A stretch of 64,000 nucleotides of DNA from positions 62,001-126,000 of the forward strand of contig WHVA01000271.1 in the NCBI GenBank assembly GCA_015179125.1, in the 5' to 3' direction. This DNA is from Gautieria morchelliformis. Taxonomy: Eukaryota > Basidiomycota > Agaricomycetes > Gomphales > Gomphaceae. A program made the translations under genes and the position numbers. Under the pieces are notes generated by a model, which ran no database searches, was not told the origin of the DNA, and was given only the letters and a program-made list of their open reading frames with translations. The stretch's first letter is position 1; each line of letters starts with the position of its first letter. Below, one piece after another: positions 26,638-56,945 of the stretch.

Positions 26638-26862
26638 TCACCCGAAATACCTATATGCATCACGTGCATGTTTCATGATGTTTGCTGTAGGGCCAGGACC
26701 TGCCGCCAGGTTCTCTACGGATTTCTCTTTGTTGAGAGTCTTTTCTAACTGCCTACCGTATACTGGTCCAAAAGCAAAAGCTTCCGGAGCCCTCGTTCCT
26801 CTGATCGGCACCGTTTTCTCCTCCACCAAGTCGCGTGACAGACGCCGAGCGCCGACGGACAC
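26638..26862 (-). CDS. Hypothetical 74-residue ORF
   Basis: Minus-strand frame with protein-like composition (GTRAPEAFAFGPVYGRQLEKTLNKEKS...NIMKHARDAYRYFG). No family recognised. It could be the last exon of a decayed gene. Confidence 0.3.
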   Translation of the reverse strand: MSVGARRLSRDLVEEKTVPIRGTRAPEAFAFGPVYGRQLEKTLNKEKSVENLAAGPGPTANIMKHARDAYRYFG

Positions 26863-28150: not shown

Positions 28151-30039
28151 CGTAACGAGAAGCAGAGCTACTTGCCCAGGCGATCGTCACGATGCATACC
28201 GTATATCCATCCGATAGCGTTGTGTGATATCGACCAGCACCAACGGGATGTGTTTGAGAACTGCTGTGCATTGTCATGTCACACGAACACGCAAACGCCA
28301 TGGGAAATAGTCGAACGGCCATCCATCGGCGCGTCTTGCTACCAAGGCGAGCCCATCGATCGCGAAATTCCAGATGTCGTATCTGGTCCATGTCTAGTAT
28401 TGCATGGGTTGGATACTGGCGGTACGTCAGATCAGTCACTCTGAGCAACGGATAGTGCCATGCACATGGAAATCTAACCATCACTGCAATCGGTAAAAAC
28501 ATGTCGAACGCTATAAATGAGGTTTCCATGGGCATGACACTATGTTCTTTTGTTATCTTCAGGATTAGCAGCTTTTAGATGGAAAACCTTACCGAATGAT
28601 GAGATCGAATGTCGTTGCGTTGGGGCCTTCTCTTTTACGCCTTCTGTGCTACGTGTTAAGGAAGCACTCCCCAGGATTTGAGCCACTTGTAGCCCAGTAC
28701 ATATGTACTGGGCTATAAGCTTGTCATATGCTTCACCCTCCATGCTCAATTTGTGGGCGGTCGAGTAATGAAAGTACGCCTCGTATGGACTCGGGCCCTT
28801 CTAGAGACGACTCCCAGATTGGGCTGCGCCTGCGTTCTGCTGATAGCTTCCTTGCGCAATTCTCATAGCTTATCGATGTCAGTTTCAAAACCAGAATGAG
28901 GAAACTTGGTAAAGACTTACACAAGGCGCTTGGGCTAGGCGGCAAGGCACCTGGCACCGATGTGCGTCGCTGGGCACCCTTTTTCTCTGTTCGCAATGAT
29001 CTGCTGTTCCATCGTGGCCAAGGGTCGGTGCTGGTAGGTAGCTCGTTTTTTTTTTTTTTTTCATTTGGCTCGCTGGGTCGCTTCCCGTGTCTGCGGCTAT
29101 AGTTCCTAATTAGCTCCAGTTTGAGGGTTTTCTGGGTAGTTTCCTTGCTCACCTGTTGGTTAGTTAAGTTCTTAATCTGCTCGCCACTCGCGTCGTGGCC
29201 TTGCTACGGCTCTAGAGGTCACCTCCCCCATAGAACAATCGACGAGGCTATTTCAAAGCCCGCTGTCTTTGAAATGGCCTTTTCGGTCATTGGTCGGTTG
29301 TATCGCTTACCGCAATAGCGACCGTGTCGGTCTTTTAACAGTGAGTTAGCCATCTCTTCACAGTGTCAATGTTGTATTAATTCTTCTTCTGGCCCCTCAA
29401 GCGACTCTACCCGTCCCAGTAGGTCAACTTCAATCACGTACAGTATGTACATTGATGGCGTGCGCATATTCCCATAGCTATCTTTATCACCGTGTTGACA
29501 TGTAGTTGATAGCAAGGTGCCTCCAGTTCTGTCCGTTGTTAGTGGCACTAGGTGGTGCCGGGGTGCAAGGCGACCTGTTGATCACGTTTGGGCACTCTTA
29601 GTCGTGATGGTAGGCTCCAGAGTTCCTTTTCCTGTTATGCAACTTCATACGCTGAGGTCCATGACCGTATGGTATCCCTTGGCAGGTCATCCGCGATGGA
29701 TGGGCGTACACTGGACGACGACCGAGCGGACTACTGTCTCTCCTCCTGGCGTGTGTCGGATCGACTCGCACCACCGAGCGACGCAGTCTTATAGTCCCAC
29801 ACGTCAATCTGGCGTGTGTTTAACTTGCAATGCAACGTCACCTTTGTTATTATCCAATCGAACGCCTTCAAGTTTTGGGACGATGCCTCATGTATGGCGC
29901 TTCAAGTTCTCACAAAGCTCCGTTGTACAATTTTGTTCTAGCTGCCCTTTCGTTATCTCTGCTTGTACACATGGGGGAGCCATGGGCGTATCCATGCCTA
30001 TGTGGGGGAGGGGGTTGTGTTCGTCATCGCGCCTAGGTA
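28151..30039 (+). other. No gene recognised; perfect 26-base palindrome
   Basis: Contains a perfect loopless palindrome (28690-28715), a T16 tract near 29047-29062 without flanking duplication, and a long plus frame (29517-30245) whose 3' half is antisense to a LINE fragment. The minus frame 29152-28733 is Lys/Arg-rich but unrecognised. Confidence 0.4.
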
Positions 30040-37430: not shown

Positions 37431-37687
37431 CGCTGGAATGGAGCAGGTTGTCAGGCTATAATAATATTGTTCAGGAATTCAACTGCAGACAACATACCTG
37501 TCTTATCCTGGAGAGGGGATGCTGTAGGAAGCGGGTTTCGTGTCTTCGAAAGCATCCTTTATATCGGTTTCTATGTCTACAAGTGTGGTAATGTTCCCAT
37601 GGAATGATGGTAGCGCCCGGAATTTCCAAATGTGTGTCTAAAGGCGGAGCGTCTCGAGCAAATTGGTCACGGTCCGTGTGCTACGAG

Positions 37688-39046
37688 TAGTGTCTTCCGG
37701 GCTCGGGCTGGGCTCAAAAGCCCGGGCTTGGGCTCGTCAAATTCCAAGCCTGGCCCTGAGCCCAAGCCCGACCAGGGCTCGGGACAGGCTCGGGCTAAAG
37801 CCCGGGCCTGCGGGTGTGGGATCCGGGAAGTCATCGAAGGGGATGCCGCACATGCATGTATTTATTACTTGAACTTAGTATCATATTAAATTCAACTACT
37901 AGACAACCTCCTCATCCAGGAGGTTGTCTAGTTCTCTCACAGTCACTGTCCAAAATGCGTAGTCAGTACGCTGTTCTGCGCAAGCTTGGCTTGCTTAATC
38001 GCATTTGGCAGTTTGTATAGTAAACCCAGTCTTAGAACACCACTCCTCCTATTGTGTAGTTAAATATCTAATGAGAAGGTTGGATGGACTAAAAAATCAC
38101 CTCATGCATCGACTGGAGGTGGTGTCGCAAGGTACTGACATCATTCACAAAACTGACCTTATACCATTCACATTTTCTAGGTTCGGACAAATCAGCGATG
38201 ATGAAATTCCTGGAGGCTGCCACACGCACCGACACAGCTTGCAGTCCATGATTTTCTTGGCTTCTTCCTGGCGCCCGTTCTCAAAAAAGAACTATATATC
38301 TAATTTTTGAATTGTCGGGTGAGACCTCGATACCATCCTAGATCTCTGAGCCACCCTTCCGGGTGGGTGATGTCATGAGTGATAGTTGGGCAGGGGTAAG
38401 GCAATTTTAGACGTATTAATAAAACCAATATAATGATAATATCAAATCACACACCGGGGACAGGCACTGGAACCTCCTTGTCCTTTTGCTTACCGGTAGG
38501 TTTTGCAACGGTATGTTTGGGTTTCTTCCTTTTAGGCTCCTCTGCTTCCCCCAGCCTCCTAGTGCCGTGAGGCCGCCCTGGGACTTTCACCACATTACAT
38601 ACAGTAATATTATTCTAATTATTAGGAGAACCTTTGTCTGGAAAAGTACAAGGGGATCCTTGTACTTTGCAGCCCTCCTTGTCTTTTATCTCCTTTACAC
38701 CGGTACACGTCACCTGCTTACATTAGCGCACCAAAGTGCCGTTTCTAGATCTCAACAATTAGACTGTGGGGAATAGGTGGAGGGACGAAGGAACAGGTGA
38801 GTAATTCTACTTCAAAACCTTTTTGTAACTACAGTTAGTAACTCGTTTGGACGTCGCAAACGATCCACAATGGCGCCAGTGATCCCCACCCAAAAGCCTG
38901 GGCTTAAGGGCCGGGCTCAGGGCTTCTGAAAATGAAGCCCGGCCCTCCTCTTCGGGCTTTTGGAGGCCTGGGCCGGGCTGGGCTCGGGCTTTTTAGGGCT
39001 GGGCTCGGGCTCAGCCCGGGCCTGAGCCCAAGCCCGGAGAACACTA
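37688..39046 (+). mobile_element. hAT-superfamily DNA transposon, 1359 bases
   Basis: Perfect 8-base target-site duplication GCTACGAG (37680-37687 and 39047-39054) and inverted termini TAGTGTCTTCCGGGCTCGGG / TAGTGTTCTCCGGGCTTGGG, matching the hAT terminal signature (Y-A-R-N-G) and the 8-base duplication rule. The termini extend about 140-160 bases as GGGCTCGGG/AAGCCC low-complexity inverted repeats. The interior is too short for a full transposase. The minus strand around 38290-38590 has a Lys/Arg-rich coding-like piece (LGEAEEPKRKKPKHTVAKP) followed by a plausible intron, suggesting a deleted transposase N-terminus. Confidence 0.85.
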
Positions 39047-39582
39047 GCTACGAGTTAGATAAGCTCGAAGGTTAGAAAACAGGTAGCAGGTTGATCTCGA
39101 GCAGGTTGCTCTTTACTCTTCCAGTTGTCAACTTTTGTAGTCAATTTCTTTTATCAAAGGAAATCTCTAATCAGATAGATCAGTATGGGACCTTTGTTGT
39201 GACATGCTGTGACCCTCCCCTGTCACCATCACCAGGCTAGACTTTTGAGTCGCCAATGCATGTCTTTCTGCCCTATCACCACCGCGGTGTTTGCACCAAA
39301 ACTCGTGAGTTTTCGTGGAGACAATATACTTGCGCATCCAGAGACGCCGTGCCGCACGGTGTCGTAATTGTGCTGCGCATCGGCTGAAGCATCTACCGAC
39401 TTCTAGTACAAGCATCCGCCCGCATGTTGGCAGCACCACTTAGCCTTTCTAATTATCTTGCCTTCTTCATAAGTTAGCCGACCATGCCAAATCTGTCCCT
39501 TGGGCATAGTGGCATACCCTGTGATGATCAGTAGTGTATATGAGAGGTCGACACCGGACTTAGAGTATTCATCCACCTGCGT
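39047..39582 (+). other. No gene recognised
   Basis: Between the hAT element and LINE E; no convincing frame. Confidence 0.4.
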
Positions 39583-53960: not shown

Positions 53961-54399
53961 GTTGGATCTAATCACGTTCGCCTCGGATCAGACAGAAACG
54001 CAAGGGCAATAAGTCGTGTGCCCTCTCAAGCATTGCAGCATACAGTGGCCGCCGAATTCTTGGGGGGTTATGGTTCCGACCGCCTGAGTTCACTATTTCA
54101 CTCTCGCAACAACCATCCGCTTGAGCGTCGTCCACTGCCCTTCCTCTCTCTCTATTCGTCTAGCTGTTGCTTTCTATTACTCTTTTTCTGTTTCCGTTGT
54201 TTGCTATCTCGCTATCGTCTCACGTCCTTGTTTCGCTTTTCGCATTTGAAAAAGTTATAAGAGAGAAAGAAAGATCGCTTCTCGCACGGAGTCTAGTGGG
54301 TGGTCGTATGGAGGGAGTGGGTCCATATGGCAACCTTGCCGCGGCGTAGCTTTGACCACGACGACCTGGCGCGGTTGGAAAAATGCCACCGAACATAAT

Positions 54400-56123
54400 C
54401 ACGAATTTAAACGTGTAGACCTGCGACCGACCTCCGTCCCCTTCCCCTTGCATCCACCCAATTCTGACTCAAACACTCTTTATATGGGCAACCTCGGGCC
54501 GTGGATGGATCACGAATACACCAGTCAAGTCGTTCGCCTGATGGGTTGGGATCGTTCCCCTACAGCCAGTATCAATCAGAACAGCTCAGTTACGATCAAA
54601 ATTCAACCACCCTCTCCTGACGCTATGCCACAGCACAACCATACCCGGGTATTGTCTGCTCATCTTCCCAAGTGCAGCACAGGAAGCTAGTATACTCGCG
54701 TCTTTGCATTCTGGTAATAACATGGATCCTGCCTCTGCCCCTCTCCTGATTCCCAATTCGTCGAGGCCTGCGCGCACATGGGCAGTGTTTGCACATCTTC
54801 AGCGGTGCCGCCATCCAGCCTGGGTCTGCGATTTCCAGTGAAGAGCCGCAACGCGAGTTCTCCATTTTCGTCGGTGATCTCACCACCGAAACGTCCAACT
54901 CGGATCTGGTGGCGGGCTTTTGAGGAATTCGGTCCTGGTCGAAACGATAGGTAGGTGGTAATTCGCATCATGCGTTTAAATGCTGTACATCTAACTTGCC
55001 CTCAGGGAGCCTACTAAGCTATAAAACGGGCGTATGAATCTAGTAGATTCATACTCCCATTTTATAGCTGTAAATCCGCATTGCGCAGGTCTACCATGAT
55101 CTTTGCGGATTCCGCAAAGATCATGGTAGACCTGCGACGGGTGTCAGTAGAGGCTATGGCTTTGTCCGGTAAGTCATAGATTTCGAAACTCCATATCATC
55201 ACGCGTATAGTGGTCTTCCCATGCGCACCATAAGAATCTAGATTGGGATCACGATAGAATCCGGACTAACGATTGCCTTCTTTGGTTTCCAGGTTCACCG
55301 ACGAGGCTGACCAACAACGTGCACTAATAGAGATGCACGGCCTCTACATTCTTTCGCGTCAAAGTGCTCAACGTCTCCTTCCTGTATCACCAAACACTCG
55401 CCTGAAGTGCGCATTGCTCCTGCAACAGCCAACCTCAAGCCAAATGCAGCTACGACCACTCCCACCCACCCAGCACCCGCCTCCCTGAGCCTTATCACTA
55501 AGATCCCAACAGCGGAAGGGGCTGATAAGGCTGGTAGCAGTGGTGCGCATAGCAGCAGAGCTCGCTGCCTCGTGACGAGCGTATCGTCGCCGGTGGCAGC
55601 AGCTTCTTCGGCTAGTAGAGCTGGGCTGAATGGTGTTTATGATGAAGCATGGACACATCAGGCGCAGGCCAGAGCGATATTGCGTAACCTGATCGGTCCA
55701 AATGGAGAACAGCTCACGAGCACTGACCCTTGTAATATGACGGTGCGTTATGCGTCCTTTGTGGTGGTCAGAACCGGACTGATATACACGTGCGCCTCGC
55801 TATTATAGGTTCGTTGGGGGCCTGTCACCGCATATTTCCGAGGAAACCTTGAGAACATTCTTTGCTCCGTTTAGCGGCGACATACATTATGTACGCTTTC
55901 CTTTGTCCCCACGTTGTCGATATTTTGCTCATAATATTTGTTGTTAAATTTATTTCTCTACTTTTATGGTCGGTACTCTAATTGCAGGTTAAGGTACCTC
56001 TCGGAAAACATTGTGGTTTCGTCCAATTTGTTCGCCAGGCAGATGCAGATCGCGCCATTGAGCGCATGAAGGGATTTCCTATCAGCGCTAGTAGGATCAG
56101 ATTTAGCTGGGGGCGAAGCCAAT
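54400..56123 (+). pseudogene. NAM8/CSX1-like triple-RRM RNA-binding protein, broken
   Basis: Homolog of fungal NAM8/TIA1-type proteins (U1 snRNP or mRNA-stability factors). RRM1: TLYMGNLGPWMDHEYTSQVV (54478), then, after a frameshift near 54620, PGYCLLIFPSAAQEASIL. RRM2: EFSIFVGDLTTETSNSDLVA (54856); intron; FILPFYSCKSA and KIMVD split by two inverted duplications; GVSRGYGFVR; intron (55169-55290); FTDEADQQRALIEMHGLY. Linker MRIAPATANLKP; ARAILRNLIGPNGEQLTS. RRM3: FVGGLSPHISEETLRTFF, intron, VKVPLGKHCGFVQFVRQADADRAIERM and RIRFSWGRSQ. Coding ends at the donor GTGAGT (56124). The last exon is absent because segment S1 starts there. It cannot encode a full protein. Confidence 0.88.
55017..55136 (+). 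repeat. Two adjacent palindromes inside the RRM2 exon
   Basis: Palindrome 1: 55017-55042 with 55044-55069 (24 of 26 pairs, 1-base centre). Palindrome 2: 55084-55109 with 55111-55136 (26 of 26 pairs, 1-base centre). In each, the right arm is the expected RRM2 coding sequence and the left arm is its inverted copy. Confidence 0.95.
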
Positions 56124-56134
56124 GTGAGTGTATT

Positions 56135-56945
56135 CTTTTAGGCTACCATTCAGTTGCGTCTATGATCTCAAGAGCACCCAAGATGACTCTGGTCGGTTTC
56201 ATATGGCGTTCATGATAGATACTGAGTTCTCTCATGAGCTCGACGGGAATGTCGCTTCGTAATGCATAAGCAAGTTCATGTGGCCGCGACGCTTGATTAT
56301 GATAAACTCAGCAGAGCCTCGGCAGAAGGATAACATGCATAGTCGTCGTCGCTGCTTGATGGGAATCCTCGACTTGTGACAAGCGCCAATCGCGCAGGGC
56401 GGTGGAGTGCTCGTATGTCTTGAAAACAATGTACCATTGGGTAAGTTACCCCTGGATTCCGATTTCGATATTTATTGAGGTGTAAAATCATGGGAAACCA
56501 TGACCAGGTCGCTTCCCGCCGTACTTTTGAGGTAGTCAAATGGTCGACTGGTGACCAGGGACAGACAGCCGAGTTTAGACCTTTTTCTTCAAAAAGATCA
56601 CTTGGAACCTCGCGAATATGAGTACACCGATATGTATTTCCAAGATCCTTGAAGCATCGGGGGCGACACTCAGTATCACTCTGAATCTAGCCTGGTGCAC
56701 TTGTGTGAGCTACGTTTGGGGATTAACTGGACAAAGTGTCCTAGATAGTCGAGAGTACGCTGAAAATCGGGATGACGCTGTAAAGGATGCACTAGCCAGA
56801 CATAGGTTTTGCATGTGTCTCTCAAATTGAGGCACACCCGTGACATCCAAAAGCATAAGAAGCTGCAGTCGGATGAATGCCTAAGGGTGGTATCGGACGC
56901 GCCGCGACTCGGTCCGACTCCAACTGAAAACCTGAGGAGTGACAA
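56135..56945 (-). repeat. Duplicated segment S1, copy C (inverted)
   Basis: Reverse complement of the first 60 percent of S1 copies A and B. It extends about 100 bases further upstream than B (shared with A from about 16700). Its truncated end is fused to the RRM gene's last donor site. Confidence 0.7.

What the first reader, a model, noticed from the sequence alone, without database searches (positions are those of the whole stretch)
55013..55140. Two back-to-back snap-back inverted duplications inside one RRM exon
Two near-perfect 53-base palindromes (26-base arms, 1-base centres) sit 14 bases apart in the RRM2 coding exon. Dropping the left arm of each restores the conserved RRM2 peptide (FILPFYSCKSA...KIMVD), so both arose as local inverted copies of the exon itself, not as inserted foreign DNA. 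Two such events in 120 bases points to polymerase template switching on a hairpin or to palindrome formation at a break, a mutation type rarely caught this cleanly.
Basis: partly seen in the sequence, partly recalled or inferred. Interest (0 to 1): 0.72.

Follow-up and report, generated by a model that had tools for sequence, protein, structure and literature searches.

The report
Paired footprints of departed hAT transposons
Two odd mirror-image duplications in a dead fungal gene copy are most likely scars left where cut-and-paste (hAT) jumping genes landed and left again, with unusually long mirror arms; the kind of scar is known, but these are a striking natural example.

Summary
Both 53-base palindromes are real and far beyond chance. 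Four of four other copies of this gene in the same genome lack them, so they are insertions. Their details fit hAT transposon excision better than template switching. In the second, the left flank keeps 7 bases of an 8-base target, then the complement of base 8, then 4 bases of left-flank palindrome; these overlap by 2 bases a 26-base right-flank palindrome centred on the complement of target base 1. No base is left over. The first has the same right-hand geometry with its left side trimmed and 3 bases unexplained. A blind scan for this geometry found another candidate at 26691-26711, and a relative on C510 shows its empty site. A hAT element with an intact 8-base duplication lies at 37688-39046; the genome has 152 hAT-domain matches. 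Unusual: both long arms are 26 nt, against a stated S. cerevisiae maximum of 20.

The parts
55011..55013 (+). Footprint 1: remnant (3 of 8 bases) of the left target-site copy
   Evidence: These 3 bases are in 4 of 4 other copies, the rest of the 8-base site in 3 of 4 with one base different from this copy; the length of 8 is inferred from footprint 2, not seen here
55014..55016 (+). Footprint 1: 3 bases not explained by the hairpin model
   Evidence: 24 bases (to 55013) explained from the left; the palindromic arm begins at 55017
55017..55042 (+). Footprint 1: 26-nt right-flank palindromic (P-nucleotide) arm, 2 mismatches
55043..55043 (+). Footprint 1: hairpin tip, complement of the base that precedes the right flank in the other copies
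   Evidence: alignment A1, 4 of 4 copies
55044..55069 (+). Footprint 1: native arm (right target copy would be 55043-55050)
   Evidence: aligned to the four other copies
55074..55080 (+). Footprint 2: first 7 bases of the left 8-base target-site copy
55081..55081 (+). Footprint 2: left hairpin tip, complement of target base 8
55082..55085 (+). Footprint 2: 4-nt left-flank palindromic arm, overlapping the right arm by 2 nt
55084..55109 (+). Footprint 2: 26-nt right-flank palindromic arm, perfect
55110..55110 (+). Footprint 2: right hairpin tip, complement of target base 1
   Evidence: 4 of 4 copies have the complementary base there
55111..55136 (+). Footprint 2: native arm; right target copy is 55110-55117
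26691..26711 (+). Further hAT-like footprint: 13-nt insertion, 8-base target, palindromic arms of 4 and 2 nt
   Evidence: Found by blind scan; matching empty site in the relative on C510
37688..39046 (+). Non-autonomous hAT element, ends TAGTG...CACTA
   Evidence: 8-base target duplication 37680-37687 and 39047-39054; related ends lie about 110-125 bases from hAT-domain hits on 13 contigs
54396..56122 (+). Decayed duplicate of an RRM-type RNA-binding protein gene that carries footprints 1 and 2 (approximate limits)

Best explanation
The two palindromes are excision footprints of hAT-superfamily cut-and-paste transposons. An element inserted with an 8-base target duplication. On excision the transposase left the two flanks as hairpin-capped ends. 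A host nuclease nicked each hairpin away from its tip, on the 5'-ended strand, so the opened end carried a palindromic (P-nucleotide) tail centred on the complement of the base next to the transposon. End joining then fused the two flanks, at footprint 2 through a 2-base microhomology. This happened twice, at target sites about 31 bases apart, perhaps by a local hop of one element. Shown: the inserts, the empty sites in other copies, the target duplication and complemented bases at footprint 2, and hAT elements in the genome. Inferred: the hairpin step, the strand and nuclease, the order of events and which element did it.
For: Footprint 2: with an 8-base target, the hairpin model explains 31 bases from the left and 67 from the right of a 96-base stretch, overlapping by 2, with nothing unexplained. 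If an inverted copy is joined at random (left run of 1-20 bases, filler of 0-5), a complemented base plus at least 4 left palindromic bases occurred in 0.0005 of 2 million draws at any stagger and in 0.00018 at stagger 8. Footprint 1 has the same 1-nt right tip, the complement of the base in 4 of 4 other copies. A blind scan of the window for fully explained hairpin footprints (inner part at least 4 nt) gave 2, 0, 1, 2, 0, 0 and 0 hits at target lengths 5 to 11; the two at length 8 are footprint 2 and 26691-26711, against 0 in 5 shuffles at that length. Over 38 sources (207,150 bases) length 8 still had only these 2, against 0 in each of 3 shuffles. The site 26691-26711 is a clean 13-nt insertion against its relative on C510. 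The window holds a hAT element with an intact 8-base duplication, and a relative on C879 (L051) has one too. PF05699: 152 matches, every listed one over the cut-off. [quoted passage not shown] TcBuster footprints in human cells are read the same way, as hairpins repaired by end joining (PMC3499496, passages). A DRMBL domain, the kind in Pso2/Artemis nucleases (label recalled), is encoded.
Against: Footprint 1 does not show the 8-base duplication: its left copy is cut to 3 bases, 3 bases stay unexplained and its arm has 2 mismatches. Arms of 26 nt exceed the 20-nt maximum stated for Ac/Ds in S. cerevisiae, and 26 twice is unexplained. No copy with the element in place was found among the five. 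The five 8-base targets seen here (three scars, two resident elements) share no clear motif; only that of footprint 2 fits nTnnnnAn, the Hermes preference (PMC10368747, passages). Another superfamily with 8-9-base duplications, the Mutator-like elements, is not excluded, though Muta1 excision in yeast was mostly precise when duplications were present (PMC5225508, passages). The shuffles are few and simple (5 mononucleotide, 3 in 50-base blocks), and shorter target lengths gave chance-level hits (length 5: 6 against 6, 5, 4; length 7: 1 against 1, 0, 1). The left tip of footprint 2 was noticed before it was tested, so the simulated frequencies are after the fact.
Confidence: 0.8

Rival explanations
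1. Replication-linked template switching: the nascent strand jumped to the opposite strand, copied 27 bases backwards and returned, twice, giving local inverted copies.
For: It explains any local reverse-complement copy and the sharing of private bases between arms. It is documented for new hairpins (PMC8794818, abstract and one section) and, as exchange between existing inverted repeats, in yeast genes (PMC8604942, abstract). The 1-nt centre also arises if the copy runs one base past the return point.
Against: It leaves the three bases at 55081-55083 and the exact 8-base stagger of footprint 2 to chance (0.00018 in the simulated null). It has no reason to give a 1-nt offset twice, and it did not predict the site 26691-26711 with its 8-base target.
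Confidence: 0.12
2. Snap-back synthesis at an ordinary double-strand break (polymerase-theta-like or other end joining): a 3' end folds on itself, is extended, and is joined to the other end.
For: It gives inverted templated inserts and fillers. This is a recalled property of polymerase theta; only a search listing with the start of one abstract was seen here.
Against: The only family-A polymerase match in the genome resembles mitochondrial polymerase gamma, although a six-frame exon-wise search can miss genes. A 1-nt loop is too tight for self-priming (established knowledge, not computed). The 8-base stagger is not predicted.
Confidence: 0.05
3. Assembly or chimeric-read artefact.
For: Both palindromes are seen in one assembled locus only; reads were not available.
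Against: The two left arms differ in state (two mismatches in one, none in the other). The base-level details of footprint 2 follow a biochemical model. The insertion at 26691-26711 is also seen in the copies on C790 and C1057.
Confidence: 0.03

Closest known systems
Ac/Ds (hAT) excision footprints with P-nucleotides in yeasts and plants (PMC5873905, passages)
   Same: Palindromic insertions centred on the complement of the base next to the transposon; trimming of one side; microhomology at the joint
   Different: Long arms of 26 nt here against a stated maximum of 20 nt in S. cerevisiae and 3 nt in C. albicans; two scars about 31 bases apart with equal long arms; natural fossils, not an assay
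Hermes and Kat1 hAT transposases (PMC10368747 and PMC4763223, passages)
   Same: 8-base target (Hermes); hairpin-capped flanking DNA after cleavage (Kat1, and Hermes as cited there)
   Different: The element responsible here is unknown; only footprint 2 fits the Hermes nTnnnnAn preference
Short template-switch mutations creating hairpins (PMC8794818, abstract and one section)
   Same: Local reverse-complement copy beside its source
   Different: Target duplication with complemented junction bases is not described in what I read
V(D)J coding-joint P nucleotides (recalled; search listing only)
   Same: Hairpin-opened ends leave palindromic additions
   Different: Different enzymes and hosts

Membership tests
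hAT excision footprint | 8-base target-site duplication around the scar | tested here: met
   Footprint 2 and 26691-26711; footprint 1 is trimmed, so inconclusive there
[quoted passage not shown]
   Right tips 55043 and 55110 are complements of the base in 4 of 4 other copies; left tip 55081 and both tips of 26691-26711 too, though the scan demanded that there
hAT excision footprint | Empty site without duplication in relatives | tested here: met
   4 of 4 other gene copies; the C510 relative for 26691-26711
hAT excision footprint | hAT elements in the genome with 8-base duplications | tested here: met
   Two elements with both duplications seen, the window's and L051; 152 hAT-domain matches. 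Present mobility was not tested
hAT excision footprint | Allele still carrying the element at the same site | not testable with these tools
   One genome held, no strain panel; none among the five copies
hAT excision footprint | Palindrome arm length within the reported range (a quantitative range, not a defining limit) | tested here: not met
   26 nt against a stated maximum of 20 nt in S. cerevisiae
Template-switch mutation | Insert is a reverse-complement copy of adjacent sequence | tested here: met
Template-switch mutation | Whole insert explained by one jump and return | tested here: not met
   55081-55083 and 55014-55016 are left over (read)
Polymerase-theta end joining | Polymerase theta encoded | tested here: inconclusive
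   Only a gamma-type family-A polymerase was found; exon-wise search

The most novel reading that the evidence does not exclude
This fungus opens transposon hairpins at a measured distance, about 27 nt from the tip on the 5'-ended strand, by a blocked-end endonuclease of the Mre11-Rad50 type rather than near the tip, so its hAT excisions routinely write perfect 53-base palindromes into the genome as a recurrent source of new hairpins.
Probability: 0.15. Interest if true: 0.6.

Novelty: new member of a known kind. Interest (0 to 1): 0.42.

Why it matters
It shows that perfect short inverted duplications, which can be put down to replication template switching, may be transposon scars, and it gives a diagnostic: a 1-nt centre equal to the complement of the native base plus an 8-base stagger. 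If the equal 26-nt arms recur in this genome, they would point to a fixed-distance hairpin-opening step, which a survey of the genome could test.

Tried and rejected
Dispersed-repeat origin of the left arms: rejected, because a search with 55008-55145 found only this locus and other copies of the gene. Other inverted repeats of the window as further snap-backs: 28673-28732 and 37898-37932 lie in multi-copy repeats that share them, so they are not private recent events. Structured RNA: no Rfam match at gathering threshold and no tRNA in the window. Polymerase theta: the only family-A polymerase match is gamma-type. Explaining the 3-base filler of footprint 1 as left-flank P-nucleotides failed (by hand). 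The clustered substitutions of the C345 copy and the 11-base deletion of the C510 copy at the same exon could not be tied to a mechanism.

Full report
OBSERVATION. Both palindromes are present as described: 26-nt arms at 55017-55042/55044-55069 (2 mismatches) and 55084-55109/55111-55136 (perfect), each with a 1-nt centre and 14 bases between them. They are the two strongest short-spacer inverted repeats of the window. The longest exact arm in 60 dinucleotide shuffles was 11 nt.

SETTING. The window lies on contig C306 of a 122-Mb genome in 1113 contigs. No name is given; the exon-intron layout and repeats look fungal to me (not tested). The exon belongs to one of five related copies of a gene for an RRM-type RNA-binding protein: this one and those on C510, C345, C180 and C438. 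Pfam RRM_1 matches the two third-domain pieces just below its cut-off (18.7 and 20.6 against 20.7 bits), and the three pieces before them, RRM2 included, gave no match; the likeness to NAM8/NGR1 proteins is recalled, not tested. The window copy has many private indels and is a decayed duplicate. Four of four other copies lack both left arms, so these are insertions, of about 32 and 36 bases as aligned. Because the copy was already decayed, no function is inferred for them.

WHERE THE ARMS CAME FROM. A search with 55008-55145 hit only this locus and the copies on C510, C438 and C180. Both arms of palindrome 1 share two substitutions absent from the four other copies. Both arms of palindrome 2 share a 1-base deletion absent from the three other copies that can be read there (C510 has its own 11-base deletion over that point). 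Two further mismatches are confined to the left arm of palindrome 1. So the copying was local and came after those private changes. The counts are too small for a date; palindrome 1 may be the older.

MECHANISM. The hAT model from the literature: cleavage leaves hairpin-capped flanks (Kat1, and Hermes as cited there; [quoted passage not shown] Hermes duplicates 8 bases (PMC10368747, passages). Footprint 2 follows this base by base. The left flank runs through 7 bases of the target (55074-55080). Position 55081 is the complement of base 8. Positions 55082-55085 are the left-flank palindrome. Positions 55084-55109 are the right-flank palindrome. Position 55110 is the complement of base 1, and the native flank follows. 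From the left 31 and from the right 67 of 96 bases are explained, with a 2-base overlap and nothing left over. In a simulated null (random left run of 1-20 bases, random filler of 0-5) the left junction reached this quality at stagger 8 in 0.00018 of 2 million draws, and at any stagger in 0.0005; the feature had been noticed before the test. Footprint 1 has the same right geometry (tip 55043, complement of the base in the other copies), but its left copy is cut to 3 bases and 3 bases remain unexplained, so there the 8-base duplication is untested.

INDEPENDENT PREDICTION. A blind scan for fully explained hairpin footprints (inner part at least 4 nt) in the window gave 2, 0, 1, 2, 0, 0 and 0 hits for target lengths 5, 6, 7, 8, 9, 10 and 11. 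Means of 5 mononucleotide shuffles were 1.4 at length 5 and 0 at the others. The two hits at length 8 are footprint 2 and 26691-26711. Over 38 sources (207,150 bases; 27 overlapping or duplicate sources of 65 were dropped, and some overlap remains) length 8 again gave these 2, against 0, 0 and 0 in shuffles within 50-base blocks. Length 5 gave 6 (shuffles 6, 5, 4), length 6 gave 0 (0, 2, 1), length 7 gave 1 (1, 0, 1), and lengths 9 and 10 gave 0. A control that replaced complementation by another base change gave none at lengths 7-10, but 9 at length 5 (shuffles 3, 2, 2) and 1 at length 6 (0, 1, 0). The site 26691-26711 was then compared with relatives. The copy on C510 lacks the 13 bases and shows one undivided target. 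The copy on C790 carries the insertion with one base different. The copy on C1057 matches only from within the left target copy onward and has one base missing there. Forty places matched the 301-base query in all; three of them were compared.

THE LIKELY CULPRITS. The window holds a 1,359-base non-autonomous hAT element (37688-39046, ends TAGTG...CACTA; that such ends are typical of hAT is recalled) between perfect 8-base duplications; a relative on C879 (L051) also has both. For the five other copies checked (L050, L052, L054, L055, L060) a second duplication was not found within the DNA held. On 13 contigs a relative of one end lies about 110-125 bases from a hAT-domain hit. PF05699 gave 152 matches; 150 of 240 candidates were scored, and every listed match is over the cut-off.

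RIVALS. Template switching can make the same inverted copies (PMC8794818, abstract and one section; PMC8604942, abstract), but leaves the left junction of footprint 2 and the site 26691-26711 to coincidence. Polymerase-theta snap-back is weakened because the only family-A polymerase match is gamma-type. A Mutator-like element (8-9-base duplications; PMC5225508, passages) is not excluded as the visitor. An artefact cannot be excluded without reads, but does not account for the pattern.

WHAT IS NEW. hAT footprints are a known kind. Unusual are the arm length (26 nt; the stated S. cerevisiae maximum is 20), its repetition in two scars about 31 bases apart, and their survival as fossils in a dead gene copy. 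Searches for such footprints showed none by title or start of abstract. The lists were capped (25 of 180, 10 of 11 and 12 of 817 papers), and the library lacks most subscription papers, including two primary yeast studies. So I make no claim that longer arms are unreported. The equal lengths may reflect a nick at a fixed distance or may be chance; two cases cannot decide. A DRMBL domain (Pso2/Artemis type, label recalled) is encoded, so simple lack of that hairpin opener is not an evident explanation.

Noticed in passing
window 37680-39054: A 1,359-base non-autonomous hAT element with a perfect 8-base target duplication; close relatives (95-98% over the part compared) on seven other contigs.
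   Followed up: yes
window 26691-26711: A small hAT-like footprint in a repeated sequence; the relative on C510 has the empty site.
   Followed up: yes
L010 (C345) and L009 (C510), same exon as the finding: The C345 copy has a cluster of about nine substitutions at the site of palindrome 1, and the C510 copy an 11-base deletion inside the site of arm 2; the exon looks like a local hot spot of change.
   Followed up: no
window 56152-56440: The gene copy ends here at a repeat of at least 289 bases (the query ended there) found at 83-84% identity at seven other places.
   Followed up: no
window 28673-28732: A 0-spacer imperfect palindrome (30-nt arms, 77%) in a repeat family with 11 other places matching the whole 291-base query or nearly so.
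   Followed up: partly
window 37898-37932: A perfect 15-nt inverted repeat inside the hAT element; a self-inverted match there also shows in 10 of 11 relatives held, not in L050.
   Followed up: partly
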